64,000 nucleotides of DNA, from positions 310,001 through 374,000 of the forward strand of contig NZ_JABAHI010000008.1 of assembly GCF_012584445.1 (NCBI RefSeq), written 5' to 3'. This document shows positions 53,417 through 57,008 of the stretch, in pieces (position 1 is the stretch's first letter; each line of letters begins with the position of its first letter). Source of the stretch: Olsenella sp. KGMB02461 (lineage in GTDB: Bacteria; Actinomycetota; Coriobacteriia; Coriobacteriales; Atopobiaceae). Under the pieces are notes generated by a model. That model did not search any database. It was not told where the DNA came from and worked only from the letters and a program-made list of their open reading frames with translations. A program made the position numbers and the translations under genes.

Positions 53417-54727
53417 TTACTCAGCGGAGTCGTTTTTCTCCGCCACTTCGTCGACCTCGGTGACCTGAGCGTTATCCAGCAGCCATTGAAGCGCCTTGGT
53501 GCGCTTGACCGTCTCGCGCACGGCAGGCATTTGGCCGGACTCTGTAAACTCTTTAAGCGCCTTGTCGAGATGCTTCTCGTCGTAGACGTTCTCGAACTCA
53601 GCACGCACGTCCTCCTGTGTGGCCTCGACGTTGAGGTGGCGTGCGAGGGCATCCAGAGCGATGGACTGACGAGCGTGCTCCACAGCCTGTGCCTGGAGGT
53701 CAGCCAGAAGCTGATCCATGGTGACACGACGGGCTTTGAGGAAGGAATCCACTGTCTGGCCGGAAGCCTGGAGGTCTTGGAGGAAAGAACGGGTGATCTC
53801 GCCGTTGATCTGCTTGACGTAGTCCTCAGGAACGGTCTCAAGCTCCAGGCGCTTCTCCAGCGCAGCCACAGCGCGATCCTCTTTGAGGGCAGGGAGATTC
53901 TGATCCTTGTCCTGCTGGATCTCCTTCTTGAGGGCTTCCTTCAAGGCATCGATGTTGTCGAAGCCAAAGACGTCGCTCACATACTCATCGGTGAGCTCGG
54001 GCACGGTCTTGACTTTGATGTCGTTGACCTTGACCTTCATCTTGATCTGGCTGCCGTCGGCGCCCTCGTACTCCACCTCTTTCTCGTCACCGGGCTTCAT
54101 GCCCGCCAAGGCCTCTTCGAGAGCCTGGGGAAGCATGCTGGAACCAGTGGGGAGCATGCGGCCTTCGCCTGCCAACTCAGAGGCGTTTTCGATATCCTCA
54201 ATGTCGACGTTCACAAAGTCGCCAGAGGCAACCTGGGTGTTCTCGTCGCCGTCCTCAAAACGAGCCTGGTAGCTCATGAGAAGATCCAGCTGAGAGGCCA
54301 CCTCTGCATCCGTAACCTCTGCAGGAGGCATCTGGATGTCTACGGGATCATAGGAGGAGAGCTCAGCGGTGGGAATGAGGGTGACGGTGACCTCTACTTC
54401 ATAGTCTTGCTTGTCGACCACAGGCTGAAGATCCTCGCCAAAGTCCAGCTCGCCCACAGGCACAACGCCCAGCTCATTGATGATGAAGGGCTCAGTCTTG
54501 GACAGAAGCTCATTGGTGGCATCTGCCATCACGGCCTCTTTACCCACAGCAGAGTCGATAACAGGACGAGGGGCGCGACCCTTGCGGAAGCCAGGGAAAT
54601 TGTAGCGACCGGCAATCTCCTTATAGGTGGCAGCCACGGCCTTCTTAACCTCGTCTGCAGGGACAGTGACACGGGCAACCAGCTTAGAATCCGCGGGCTC
54701 ACCAGCGGTAACGGTGATATCCAACAT
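53417..54727 (-). CDS. tig: Trigger factor
   Basis: 436-aa ribosome-associated chaperone and prolyl isomerase. Ribosome-binding signature FPGFRKGRAPRPVID (about 45-60), a PPIase domain around 150-240 (ASGDFVNVDIEDIENA) and a helical C-terminal domain. An acidic tail follows. The start ATG 54727 (MLDITVTAGEP) sits directly against GGAGGA, an unusually short spacing; the adjacent TTG codon is an alternative. The open frame continues 25 codons upstream with no homology. Confidence 0.94.
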   Translation of the reverse strand: MLDITVTAGEPADSKLVARVTVPADEVKKAVAATYKEIAGRYNFPGFRKGRAPRPVIDSAVGKEAVMADATNELLSKTEPFIINELGVVPVGELDFGEDLQPVVDKQDYEVEVTVTLIPTAELSSYDPVDIQMPPAEVTDAEVASQLDLLMSYQARFEDGDENTQVASGDFVNVDIEDIENASELAGEGRMLPTGSSMLPQALEEALAGMKPGDEKEVEYEGADGSQIKMKVKVNDIKVKTVPELTDEYVSDVFGFDNIDALKEALKKEIQQDKDQNLPALKEDRAVAALEKRLELETVPEDYVKQINGEITRSFLQDLQASGQTVDSFLKARRVTMDQLLADLQAQAVEHARQSIALDALARHLNVEATQEDVRAEFENVYDEKHLDKALKEFTESGQMPAVRETVKRTKALQWLLDNAQVTEVDEVAEKNDSAE

Positions 54728-54899
54728 TCCTCCTGATAATCTATGAGCCGCCCCTATGGCGGCGCTAGGGAGCACAAGGCACCTAACTTTACGAACGTAC
54801 ATTCTGATACTAAAGCGCGCTCAGGTCAAAGCAAAGTTGCTCAATGCGTGCACGCATCGTGTAGCTACCGAGAAACCCTTCCATCGCACTGCTCAATAA
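54728..54899 (-). promoter_or_regulatory. tig leader and promoter region
   Basis: Candidate promoter on the minus strand: -35 TTGACC and -10 CAGAAT (+ strand 54801-54829, 17-bp spacer). A GCCGCC/GGCGGC hairpin (54747-54763) lies in the leader, about 20 nt before the ATG. An 11-of-12 copy of GGGTTTCTCGGC lies at 54867-54878. The prophage fragment begins at its upstream end. Confidence 0.4.
54867..54878 (-). repeat. Near-copy of 12-mer GGGTTTCTCGGC
   Basis: Minus-strand GGGTTTCTCGGT, one mismatch, about 140 nt upstream of tig and just outside the prophage fragment. Confidence 0.5.
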
Positions 54900-55904
54900 C
54901 GTCTTGCGTCCCGACTTTTACCCTTTTCACAATGTATTGCTTCTTGGGATACCTCCACCGGCTACGGCACAGTGACGGGTCTGGCAGGCGCCAACTGCCG
55001 CCACACCATGACGCCCTACGTGCCCGGCCTCTCCAATCTCCCACGCACCGACTTCTCGGAAGAAGAGAGGCTCTTCGGCAAGACCTCCGACGAATACTAC
55101 GAGGCCACCCAGGTGCAGCGCCGCCTGGAGCGCCAGGTGAGAAAGTACAAGCGCCGCATAGCTTGCGGCGAGGAGCGGGGTCTCGACATGACAGGCGACC
55201 GGGCCCGTCTCGGCCAGGCCCAGAAGCGTGTGCGCCAGTGGTGCAAGCAGAACACGCTCCCCCGCCAGTATGAGCGGGAGAAGGCCTACGGCGTGGCCAA
55301 GCAGCCGAGAGCACTAGGCCCACAGAGGATCTACAAGGCCTCTCAGATCAAAACAAGGGAGAAGTTCTTGGAAGCACGCTGGAGGGGAGATCTGGCAGAC
55401 GAGTGGGGTGGAGTCTTCGATAGCCAGGGAAACCTTGTGGGCAAGATCGAGCGAGGCCATGGTGGAACCGTTACATTCATCTGCCCAGATGGATATGAGT
55501 GGAAAGATCTCAGGCCGGTACACACGCACCCTGGAGCCATCGGAGGGACATTCTCTGTGGGTAGCCGCGAGGAGGGTGGCGACATCTTCCATCTGACAGA
55601 CGCCAATTGTCTTGGATATGACGCCCGGTGCAACGAGGGCACTTATTCCATCTCGAGGACCCCAGCATCGAGGCCAAAAGAGTTCTATCTGGCTGCCAGG
55701 GAAGCAGAGTTGGATGCGAGAGATGCTGCATACAACGCTGTGTGTGACAGGTGGGAGCGACAAGGCATGTCGTTTTTAGCGGGACCTGGTCAGCAACAGT
55801 TTATCAGCGAAAACAAGGAAGCTATGAGCGATATAATGCATAAGTGGTTCAAGGATAATGCTGTACAATACGGTTATAAGTACAGTTTTAATCGGAGGGA
55901 GTAG
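54900..55904 (+). pseudogene. Truncated MuF-type phage minor head protein fused to JAB/JAMM-like domain
   Basis: The 334-codon open frame has homologous-looking sequence before its only usable start (GTG 54972): DTSTGYGTVTGLAGANCRH precedes and spans it. STGYG..GL.G.NCRH...P...G.S is the C-terminal signature of phage minor capsid proteins (SPP1 gp7/Mu gpF-like, Phage_min_cap2). So the N-terminal head domain is missing and the gene is 5'-truncated. Residues about 40-110 (from the GTG) are charged and coiled. A C-terminal domain follows: Glu144 in DEWGGVFDSQGNLV, then VHTHP (His184, His186), FS (Ser195) and Asp204, resembling the JAMM metal site E...HxH...S...D. This architecture is that of MuF polymorphic toxins. 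Truncation and an expanded Ser-Asp spacing make activity doubtful. Confidence 0.65.
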
Positions 55905-55906
55905 GG

Positions 55907-56098
55907 ATGCAAAGGGAGTATACAGTGCATAGCTACACCTTCCCATTTGGGAAGCCAGGAACTGACGAATGCACTTTAAAGATGGTGGCAGCCCGAGCAA
56001 AGAGTAAGGGAATTAGCGAAGAGCAGGCCGCGAAAACCATGCTCGGTGGCGAGCTGTTTAAACAGTGGAAGAAGGCAAAAGAGTCGGCCACCGTATAG
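55907..56098 (+). CDS. Small protein following the MuF fusion; candidate immunity or partner
   Basis: 63 aa, unrecognised: MQREYTVHSYTFPFGKPGTDE, then a helical basic C-terminal half (MVAARAKSKGISEEQAAKTMLGG, FKQWKKAKESA). The ATG lies 3 nt after the fusion's stop; GGAGGGAGTAGGG overlaps that stop, so the two are translationally linked. An intrinsic terminator closes the unit 38 nt later. In MuF polymorphic toxin loci the gene right after the toxin usually encodes immunity; assigning that here is inference only. Confidence 0.6.
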   Translation: MQREYTVHSYTFPFGKPGTDECTLKMVAARAKSKGISEEQAAKTMLGGELFKQWKKAKESATV

Positions 56099-56135: not shown

Positions 56136-56165
56136 AAAGGCATCGGAATCGATGCCTTTTCTTTT
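56136..56165 (+). terminator. Intrinsic terminator after the 63-codon gene
   Basis: Perfect 10-bp stem AAAGGCATCG / CGATGCCTTT, GAAT loop, tail TTTCTTTT. Unusual inside a phage structural module; it marks the fusion and the small gene as a cargo unit. Confidence 0.85.
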
Positions 56166-56185
56166 GGCGTTACAGCTCCCCCATC
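56166..56185 (+). repeat. 20-bp direct repeat, copy 1
   Basis: GGCGTTACAGCTCCCCCATC, right after the terminator and 33 nt before the 73-codon gene. Identical to copy 2 at 56440-56459. Confidence 0.9.
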
Positions 56186-56217
56186 TTTTGCACCATCAAG
56201 ACGGAAGGAGCCGACCG

Positions 56218-56439
56218 ATGAAACCTGAAGATGCCATCAACGAAGCCCTGCGACAGGCAGGTCTGGCCATAGCCGCAGATCCCGAAGCCCTCACCTGCAA
56301 CACGACCCATACCCATCGGTGCATGGACGATGACGATAACGGGACGCTTTGCATGCGTATGGAGATCCTGGCCTATCAGAGCGGCTACTGCGAGATCCGC
56401 ACCAACTCTCGCTGGGGGTTCCTGGTAGAGGAAGACTAA
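56218..56439 (+). CDS. Small protein of unknown function in prophage fragment
   Basis: 73 aa: MKPEDAINEALRQAGLAIAA, followed by a cysteine/histidine stretch (CNTTHTHRCMDDDD) and a strand-like end (GYCEIRTNSRWGFLVEED). AAGGAG lies 8 nt before the ATG. Lies where head-module accessory genes occur in temperate phages. I do not recognise the family. Confidence 0.55.
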   Translation: MKPEDAINEALRQAGLAIAADPEALTCNTTHTHRCMDDDDNGTLCMRMEILAYQSGYCEIRTNSRWGFLVEED

Positions 56440-56459
56440 GGCGTTACAGCTCCCCCATC
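56440..56459 (+). repeat. 20-bp direct repeat, copy 2
   Basis: GGCGTTACAGCTCCCCCATC, overlapping the last base after the 73-codon gene and 57 nt before the scaffold-like start. Same role as copy 1 is likely (phage intergenic control or recombination site). Confidence 0.9.
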
Positions 56460-56516: not shown

Positions 56517-56715
56517 ATGACTCTGAACGGTGCGCAACAGCAGACCCTAGGCGAGAGCGGCCAGCTCCAAGACCCTAAGGGCGGCGAGGGCAGCAAGCCC
56601 CAGGACCCGAATGCCGGCAGCACTGCACCCCAAGACCCAGGCCAAGGCGAGGGTGATTCCTAAGAGCCCAAGGTCGACCACAAGCTGGAGGTCGACAACC
56701 GACGCCTGCTAAGTT
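56517..56715 (+). pseudogene. Broken phage scaffold-like N-terminus
   Basis: ATG 56517 follows GGGAGGT. The first 48 codons encode a Gly/Gln/Asp/Pro-rich low-complexity start with three QDP motifs (QLQDPKGGEG, PQDPNAGS, PQDPGQG), as in the leading segment of many phage scaffold proteins. A TAA at 56661 interrupts. The same frame continues with EPKVDHKLEVDNRRLL and then loses coherent sequence at about 56712, where the DNA turns AT-rich. Both an internal stop and a 3' deletion are seen. The scaffold assignment is tentative, based on composition and order after the head protein. Confidence 0.45.
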
Positions 56716-56832: not shown

Positions 56833-56919
56833 TGGTGCGGGCAAGAGGGCTCGAACCTCCACGGACAAAAGTCCACAAGAACCTAAATCTTGCGCGTCTG
56901 CCAATTCCGCCATGCCCGC
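56833..56919 (-). tRNA. tRNA-Leu (anticodon TAG)
   Basis: 87 nt class-II tRNA. Acceptor GCGGGC pairs with GCCCGC before ACCA; the CCA is encoded. Anticodon loop TTTAGGT on a CAAGA/TCTTG stem gives TAG, reading CUN leucine codons. The long variable arm (GGACTTTTGTCC) and GTTCGAGC T-loop are present. Its 3' end faces the prophage fragment. Confidence 0.95.
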
Positions 56920-56959: not shown

Positions 56960-56990
56960 AACCCATCCCTCCCAGAAGGAAGGATGGGTT
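56960..56990 (-). terminator. Terminator after gdhA
   Basis: Stem AACCCATCC / GGATGGGTT with extra TCC/GGA pairs. Minus-strand tail TTTTCTTG; on the plus strand the stem runs into TTTCTCGGC (56989-56997). Confidence 0.8.
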
Positions 56991-56997
56991 TCTCGGC
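56986..56997 (+). repeat. Copy of 12-mer GGGTTTCTCGGC
   Basis: Exact copy, extended to GGGTTTCTCGGCAG; its GGGTT is the 3' arm of the gdhA terminator stem. Confidence 0.7.
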
Positions 56998-57008
56998 AGA
57001 CAAAAGGA

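What the first reader, a model, noticed from the sequence alone, without database searches (positions are those of the whole stretch)
54900..55904. Decapitated MuF-type phage head protein carrying a JAB/JAMM-like C-terminal domain
The frame is open and homologous-looking before its only usable start codon. The sequence DTSTGYGTV then GLAGANCRH...P...G.S is the end of phage minor head (gp7/MuF) proteins. Behind it lies a domain with Glu144, VHTHP, FS and Asp204 (numbered from the GTG), resembling a JAMM metal site. MuF proteins fused to variable toxin domains are a described phage weapon class; a JAB-like effector on this scaffold, preserved in a chromosome after loss of the head part, would be a notable variant. 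Basis: signature residues are seen; MuF toxin concept is known; effector role is inferred.
Basis: partly seen in the sequence, partly recalled or inferred. Interest (0 to 1): 0.78.

Follow-up and report, generated by a model that had tools for sequence, protein, structure and literature searches.

The report
Orphan phage-head toxin tail kept in chromosome
A bacterium has kept the back half of a phage head protein, with a zinc-enzyme-like (JAMM) domain and a small partner gene, long after the rest of the phage was lost; its sequence has been protected by selection since two species split, so it is a working gene of still unknown activity rather than debris.

Summary
54900-55904 is one open frame. 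Its first part is the last third of a Phage_min_cap2 (MuF-type) head protein (PF06152 positions 260-366 of 366, E 1.7e-23). Its last ~180 residues carry E144, H184xH186, S195 and D204. Nine related domains keep E, HxH and D, and most keep the full JAMM spacing HxH-x8-S-x2-D; the window copy has six extra residues between S and D. No Pfam model matches the domain. Predicted models match phage minor-capsid and large-DNA-virus JAB-like proteins well (E about 1e-8 to 1e-2) and solved JAMM/MPN structures only weakly (Z at most 4.4). JAMM domains on full-length MuF genes exist in three related prophages, so the fusion is not unique to this site.

What is new is the state of the gene. The sister species has the same truncation at the same site, and the truncated frame has dN/dS 0.095 (tig next door: 0.053). 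It is not decay. Similar truncated modules occur in four other genomes, two of them lying exactly between CRISPR repeats.

Best reading: an orphan MuF toxin-tail/partner module, comparable to orphan cdiA-CT/cdiI modules, probably acting as a toxin-immunity or addiction pair. Enzyme activity, toxicity and immunity are inferred, not shown.

The parts
54665..54961 (.). 297-bp stretch identical to the sister species, spanning the tig start and the upstream region of the truncated gene; presumed shared regulatory DNA
   Evidence: longest identical run in 14 kb aligned; tig promoter-like site 54829-54801 on the - strand
54945..54971 (+). MuF remnant read in frame before the GTG (WDTSTGYGTV; homology starts about here)
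   Evidence: PF06152 match starts at residue 18, phrog_581 at residue 16
54972..55904 (+). truncated MuF-JAMM gene, 310 aa from the GTG (open frame 54900-55904, 334 codons)
   Evidence: dN/dS 0.095 against the G001 ortholog
54951..55247 (+). last third of the Phage_min_cap2 (MuF-type) domain, including the terminal NCRH motif; model positions 1-259 are missing
   Evidence: PF06152 E 1.7e-23, positions 260-366 of 366
55302..55316 (+). QPRAL motif: the point where similarity to intact MuF relatives stops and the C-termini become unrelated (comparable to VENN in CdiA)
   Evidence: alignment with L074 and L075
55368..55901 (+). C-terminal JAMM-like domain
   Evidence: alignments A1 and A3; models; fold comparisons
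55401..55403 (+). Glu144, predicted JAMM glutamate
   Evidence: invariant in nine relatives
55521..55532 (+). H184-T-H186-P187, predicted metal ligands
   Evidence: HTH invariant in nine relatives
55554..55583 (+). S195 to D204: JAMM S and D with six extra residues between them compared with relatives
55907..56098 (+). 63-aa partner ORF, strong Shine-Dalgarno, 2 nt after the JAMM gene; candidate immunity/antitoxin
   Evidence: a small ORF follows the JAMM gene directly in all nine loci; no family match
56136..56159 (+). intrinsic terminator that closes the two-gene unit
   Evidence: 10-bp stem, T-rich tail
56166..56185 (+). direct repeat GGCGTTACAGCTCCCCCATC, copy 1
56218..56439 (+). 73-aa ORF in a block that is only about 64% identical to the sister species, bounded by the direct repeats
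56440..56459 (+). direct repeat GGCGTTACAGCTCCCCCATC, copy 2
56517..56663 (+). 48-aa remnant of a gene in the position where the phage scaffold gene starts (longer in the sister species); assignment by position only
   Evidence: no family match
56833..56919 (-). tRNA-Leu next to the phage remnant (likely old integration site, inferred)

Best explanation
This is an orphan MuF toxin-tail module: what remains of a temperate phage of which the host kept the end of the minor head (MuF) gene with its JAMM-type C-terminal domain, the small gene behind it, and little else. Shown: the homology, the truncation, the shared truncation in two species, and purifying selection on the truncated frame after the truncation. 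Inferred: the truncated protein is made in low amounts and has JAMM-type metal-dependent hydrolase activity (peptidase or nuclease, target unknown); the 63-aa partner restrains it; and the pair is kept as a toxin-immunity or addiction unit that protects the host against phages carrying the same MuF warhead, or that simply cannot be lost once both genes are active.
For: MuF identity: PF06152 E 1.7e-23, phrog_581 E 1.3e-31. Intact full-length MuF-JAMM genes behind a portal-like gene in G437 (PF06152 1-366/366, E 1.8e-53), and in G450 and G352. JAMM residues conserved in nine domains. Fold: the first 50 VIA rows are largely JAMM/MPN proteins (Rpn11 Z 4.4, RadC 4.1, AMSH, AF2198 3.8) and deaminases of the same fold; viral-library hits to minor capsid proteins and small phage proteins at E 1e-8 to 1e-5. 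Selection: dN/dS 0.095; 14 amino-acid changes against 42 expected neutrally (minimum 30 in 2000 simulations), and 93% of the simulations gain a stop. Polymorphic-toxin architecture: relatives 62-66% identical in the MuF part carry other C-termini (Ntox50 E 4.5e-18; another JAB) after the QPRAL motif. A small ORF follows in 9 of 9 loci and six of eight distinct ones form one family. Truncated copies recur in G052, G030, G191 and G249. Orphan cdiA-CT/cdiI modules show the same anatomy: CT fragment without translation signals, boundary motif kept, immunity gene expressible (PMC3150448).
Against: No activity, expression or toxicity was tested. The window's partner ORF is not detectably related to the partner family (E 35; pairwise p 0.05 or higher). 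There is no clear ribosome-binding site for the GTG and no consensus + strand promoter. Six extra residues between S and D could impair the metal site. Foldseek against solved structures found nothing significant and all VIA Z scores are below 5. Jamet et al. (PMC5576092) expect peptidase MuF domains to be only moderately toxic.
Confidence: 0.5

Rival explanations
1. Domesticated phage-interference protein: the kept MuF fragment (or the JAMM domain acting on head proteins) disturbs assembly or ejection of incoming related phages, so the host uses it as a defence gene rather than as a toxin-immunity pair.
For: The MuF remnant is itself conserved between species (dN/dS 0.105 over residues 16-140), more than a mere linker would need; the upstream region is the most conserved stretch of 14 kb. 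Phage-derived fragments that interfere with capsids are a known theme (own knowledge).
Against: Other orphan copies (G191, and nearly all of the MuF part in G249) keep almost no MuF sequence but do keep the JAMM domain and partner, so the constant part is the C-terminal domain.
Confidence: 0.2
2. Immunity reservoir only: selection acts on the partner gene, which protects against phages carrying this MuF domain, and the truncated toxin gene is a passive passenger.
For: Matches an explanation offered for orphan cdiI genes (PMC3150448); the partner has a strong Shine-Dalgarno and a terminator behind it.
Against: The toxin frame shows clear purifying selection (46 of 62 substitutions at third positions), whereas the partner has dN/dS 0.34 from few substitutions.
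Confidence: 0.15
3. The C-terminal domain keeps the fold but is not a working JAMM enzyme; it serves a structural or binding role.
For: Six-residue insertion between S and D; S replaced by G in two relatives; low Z to solved JAMM structures.
Against: E, HxH and D are invariant across nine divergent domains.
Confidence: 0.1
4. Neutral prophage debris that happens to remain open.
For: Phage remnant next to a tRNA gene; neighbouring phage genes are gone or broken.
Against: dN/dS 0.095, close to the neighbour tig (0.053); 93% of neutral simulations acquire a stop; same truncation in both species.
Confidence: 0.05

Closest known systems
MuF polymorphic toxins of temperate phages (Jamet et al. 2017, PMC5576092; Zhang et al. 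2012, PMC3482391)
   Same: MuF head domain with an exchangeable C-terminal enzyme domain, small ORF directly behind; metallopeptidase domains make up 20% of the 191 MuF toxins listed
   Different: Those are complete genes inside (pro)phages; here the head part is missing, no phage is left, and the truncated gene is under host-side selection
Orphan cdiA-CT/cdiI and rhs-CT modules (Poole et al. 2011, PMC3150448)
   Same: C-terminal toxin fragment cut upstream of a conserved boundary motif, no good translation start, followed by a small expressible immunity gene
   Different: Delivery platform is a phage head protein instead of a secreted CdiA; here the module stands alone with no intact parent gene nearby, and the CT frame is under purifying selection
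[quoted passage not shown]
   Same: JAB fold with E, HxH, S, D; Tox-JAB-2 also occurs in caudoviruses and large DNA viruses, which the window model matches
   Different: No Pfam match to DUF4329 or any other JAB model; long helical tail ending in a YG-[YF]-x-Y motif; MuF delivery
RadC-type and Rpn11/AMSH-type JAMM enzymes
   Same: Metal-site residues and overall fold by VIA alignment
   Different: Z at most 4.4, sequence identity 11-19%, different context

Membership tests
MuF polymorphic toxin | MuF / Phage_min_cap2 head domain at the N-terminus | tested here: not met
   only positions 260-366 of 366 remain in the window; intact in L030 (1-366). It derives from the family but is no longer a complete member
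MuF polymorphic toxin | C-terminal domain exchangeable behind a conserved MuF part | tested here: met
   62-66% identical MuF parts carry Ntox50 or another JAB after QPRAL
MuF polymorphic toxin | small ORF directly downstream (putative immunity) | tested here: met
   9 of 9 loci; neutralisation itself not testable
MuF polymorphic toxin | carried by a (pro)phage | tested here: not met
   tig on one side, tRNA-Leu/gdhA on the other; no other complete phage gene recognised
Orphan toxin-CT/immunity module (CDI/Rhs type) | CT fragment retaining the boundary motif, lacking the delivery part | tested here: met
   NCRH and QPRAL kept, head part lost
Orphan toxin-CT/immunity module (CDI/Rhs type) | cognate toxin activity and neutralisation | not testable with these tools
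   needs expression experiments
JAMM/MPN (JAB) metalloenzyme | E...HxH(P)-x7-S-x2-D signature | tested here: inconclusive
   G191 fits exactly; most others have HxHT; E, HxH and D invariant in nine; the window has S-x8-D
JAMM/MPN (JAB) metalloenzyme | JAB fold | tested here: inconclusive
   VIA top rows are JAMM/MPN and deaminase folds but Z at most 4.4; second model less specific; Foldseek PDB none significant
JAMM/MPN (JAB) metalloenzyme | metal-dependent hydrolase activity | not testable with these tools
   biochemistry needed
Tox-JAB-2 / DUF4329 | match to the family profile | tested here: inconclusive
   no Pfam hit at E up to 10 for P0001 or up to 1 for nine relatives; viral fold hits include large DNA virus proteins, in which the family is reported

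The most novel reading that the evidence does not exclude
Hosts repeatedly salvage and keep the toxin end of phage MuF genes plus the partner gene as stand-alone cassettes, and in one bacterial family CRISPR arrays serve as an integron-like store for them: gene-sized phage and toxin-antitoxin pieces (JAMM tails, a papain-type toxin, HicAB, HipA, SocA, YjcQ) sit exactly between intact CRISPR repeats. The window copy would be a chromosomal member of this salvage class that has become fixed and is under selection as an addiction or anti-phage gene.
Probability: 0.25. Interest if true: 0.82.

Novelty: new variant of a known kind. Interest (0 to 1): 0.57.

Why it matters
MuF toxins are known mostly from sequence surveys, as parts of complete phages. 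A truncated copy that two species have kept under strong selection without any phage gives a small, testable two-gene unit (JAMM domain plus 63-aa partner) in which the activity of this domain class can be studied away from head assembly. It also suggests that bacteria keep orphan phage-delivered toxin ends the way CDI and Rhs bacteria keep orphan toxin-immunity modules. The related copies lying between CRISPR repeats raise a separate question, whether CRISPR arrays can collect whole genes.

Tried and rejected
(1) Neutral decay: rejected by dN/dS and simulation. (2) Internal start at ATG 55188, which would exclude the MuF part: disfavoured, because codons 25-95 already show 14 synonymous to 3 non-synonymous differences. 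(3) JAMM domain as a known Pfam/PHROG/NCBIfam family: no match. (4) Solved-structure relatives by sequence: none. Foldseek against PDB: nothing significant; second model by VIA gave mixed folds. (5) Close relatives of the domain in phage and plasmid records: only E 2 and 7; IMG/VR gave one locus. (6) CRISPR repeats around the window copy: none found with up to 10 mismatches. (7) Homology of the window's partner ORF to the partner family: not supported. (8) Structured RNA in the conserved upstream stretch: no Rfam hit except the tRNA. (9) L007, L009, L010, L027 and L028 were judged chance hits. (10) Papers on gene-sized inserts in CRISPR arrays: three searches found none; absence from this open-access library is not proof of novelty.

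Full report
Observation. The window position 54900-55904 holds a frame of 334 codons without a stop, closed upstream by a stop at 54897-54899. Its residues 18-116 match Pfam Phage_min_cap2 (PF06152) at E 1.7e-23, but only model positions 260-366 of 366; PHROG 581 'minor head protein' matches at 1.3e-31. tblastn against 50,697 phage records finds 226 records with a similar stretch, mostly minor capsid or MuF-like proteins among the rows shown. So the STGYG...NCRH segment is the end of a MuF-type head protein, and the first 259 model positions are missing. The match begins seven codons before GTG 54972, the only ATG/GTG/TTG ahead of the NCRH motif; in-frame ATGs lie further in, at 55008 and 55188.

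C-terminal domain. The last ~180 residues match no Pfam, PHROG or NCBIfam model. Searching genomes of the same class and order with the domain brought in nine true loci. In the alignment of nine sequences E, H, H and D are invariant, and the G191 copy has the exact JAMM spacing HxHP-x7-S-x2-D; most others have the same spacing with T in place of P. The window and its sister carry six extra residues between S and D, and two relatives have G for S, so catalytic competence is not guaranteed. AlphaFold2 models from four-row alignments reached pLDDT 73 and 77, pTM about 0.7. Foldseek against PDB gave nothing significant. Re-alignment by VIA put Rpn11, RadC, AMSH, AF2198, CSN5 and BRCC36, all JAMM/MPN proteins, together with cytidine deaminases of the same fold, at the top, but with Z of 4.4 or less; the second model was less specific. 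Against predicted viral proteins both models hit phage minor capsid proteins and small phage proteins at E 1e-8 to 1e-5, and the window model also hits JAB-like proteins of large DNA viruses. I take a JAB-like fold as likely (about 85%), not proven.

Intact parents. Complete MuF-JAMM genes sit behind portal-like genes in prophages of G437 (full-length PF06152, E 1.8e-53), G450 and G352; gene names other than the Pfam matches were assigned by eye and by order. MuF genes whose MuF part is 62-66% identical to the window's carry other C-termini, Ntox50 in G019 and a different JAB in G059, and similarity stops at a QPRAL motif. This is the architecture of a polymorphic toxin, as described for MuF proteins (PMC5576092) and, with JAB toxins, for other delivery systems (PMC3482391).

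Truncated but under selection. The only other held genome of the genus has the same gene, truncated at the same point and lying between the same neighbours. The two differ at 62 sites, 46 of them third codon positions. dN/dS is 0.095 for the whole frame, 0.105 for the MuF remnant, 0.083 for the C-terminal part, and 0.053 for the neighbouring trigger factor gene. Placing the same substitutions at random gives 42 amino-acid changes on average (minimum 30 in 2000 trials) against 14 observed, and 93% of trials introduce a stop. As the junction is shared and identical, the truncation predates the split; selection has acted on the truncated form. The 297 bp ending at 54961 are the longest identical stretch in the 14 kb compared, which fits regulatory DNA in front of the gene, although recombination cannot be excluded. 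Limits: two genomes only, and a simple counting method.

The unit. Two bases after the gene a 63-aa ORF with a strong ribosome-binding site follows, then an intrinsic terminator at 56136-56159. A small ORF stands at this place in all nine loci; six of the eight distinct ones form one family in leave-one-out tests (E 6e-4 to 2e-15), but those of the window and of G191 are not detectably related to it. Behind the terminator lie a 73-aa ORF in a block that differs strongly between the species and is bounded by a 20-bp direct repeat, a short remnant where a scaffold gene would start, and tRNA-Leu.

Recurrence. Truncated JAMM modules with partner also occur in G052 (near a tRNA-Ala), in G030 (near integrase-like genes; here the Mu_F core domain is kept and only the part before it is missing), and in G191 and G249. 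In the last two the module lies exactly between CRISPR repeats: in G249, a single-contig genome, a 1,687-bp piece that begins in the MuF Cys motif (EQTADHAHAGCDCRIVP) and ends in what looks like a scaffold start is flanked by perfect 36-bp repeats of an array with cas1 beside it (Pfam PF01867; a cas9-like ORF by eye). Because these were found with the JAMM domain as query, their number says nothing about how often other phage genes are kept.

Mechanism. The best-supported reading is an orphan MuF toxin-tail module, comparable to orphan cdiA-CT/cdiI modules, whose CT fragments also keep the boundary motif and lack translation signals while the immunity gene is expressible (PMC3150448). Shown: origin, truncation, selection, pairing with a small ORF. 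Inferred: metal-dependent hydrolysis, toxicity, neutralisation by the partner, and benefit as an addiction or anti-phage unit. A main rival is a domesticated phage-interference protein, since the MuF remnant is also conserved; another is that only the partner matters. Neutral debris is effectively excluded.

Verdict. MuF plus a JAMM-like tail is a member of a known kind; a stand-alone, selected, truncated copy in a chromosome is a new variant. The related copies within CRISPR arrays are the most surprising lead and deserve their own study.

Noticed in passing
L012 9906-19501 with L013 1-3990 (G249); L011 minus strand (G191 C7 60197-65458); L068 (G396 C20); L069 (G304 C21); L070 (G191 C6): CRISPR arrays with inserts of 0.4-2.3 kb between intact 36-bp repeats, amid normal 30-bp spacers. 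Inserts hold HicA/HicB, HipA-like, HSDR_N, SocA/Panacea, YjcQ, DUF2513, a papain-type toxin (PF15644) and two kinds of JAB-like phage ends. G233, same genus as G249, has 56 repeats and no insert.
   Followed up: partly
L068 2776-3776 and 3813-4645 (G396): Two inserts between CRISPR repeats begin inside an open frame at the repeat edge: a JAB-like domain (HNHP-x5-S-x2-D) and a glutamine-deamidase papain toxin (PF15644 E 4.4e-13), i.e. further toxin ends without their heads.
   Followed up: partly
window 54665-54961: 297 bp identical to the sister species although the surrounding genes differ by 3-7%; more than the tig promoter alone would need.
   Followed up: partly
window 56166-56459: A 20-bp direct repeat flanks a 73-aa ORF whose version in the sister species is very different (about 64% nucleotide identity with indels), as if the block had been exchanged between the repeats.
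   Followed up: no
window 54865-54885 and 56979-56999: Inverted 21-nt repeat (86%) on the two sides of the phage remnant; one arm is part of a terminator-like hairpin downstream of gdhA.
   Followed up: no
L017 3896-4642 (MT835636.1): Stand-alone 248-aa phage protein from human faeces with a JAB-like motif HNHP-x17-S-x2-D and a similar YG-containing tail; a possible distant relative (tblastn E 2).
   Followed up: no
L078 658-2853 (G084): MuF gene with a C-terminal zincin-like motif HEYGHYIDH, another metalloenzyme tail on the same head part.
   Followed up: no
L030 7814-8269 (G437) and inserts in L012, L011: A YjcQ-family gene (PF09639) follows an intact MuF-JAMM gene in a prophage and also occurs in CRISPR inserts of two genomes, hinting that these inserts come from the MuF-scaffold stretch of phage genomes.
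   Followed up: partly
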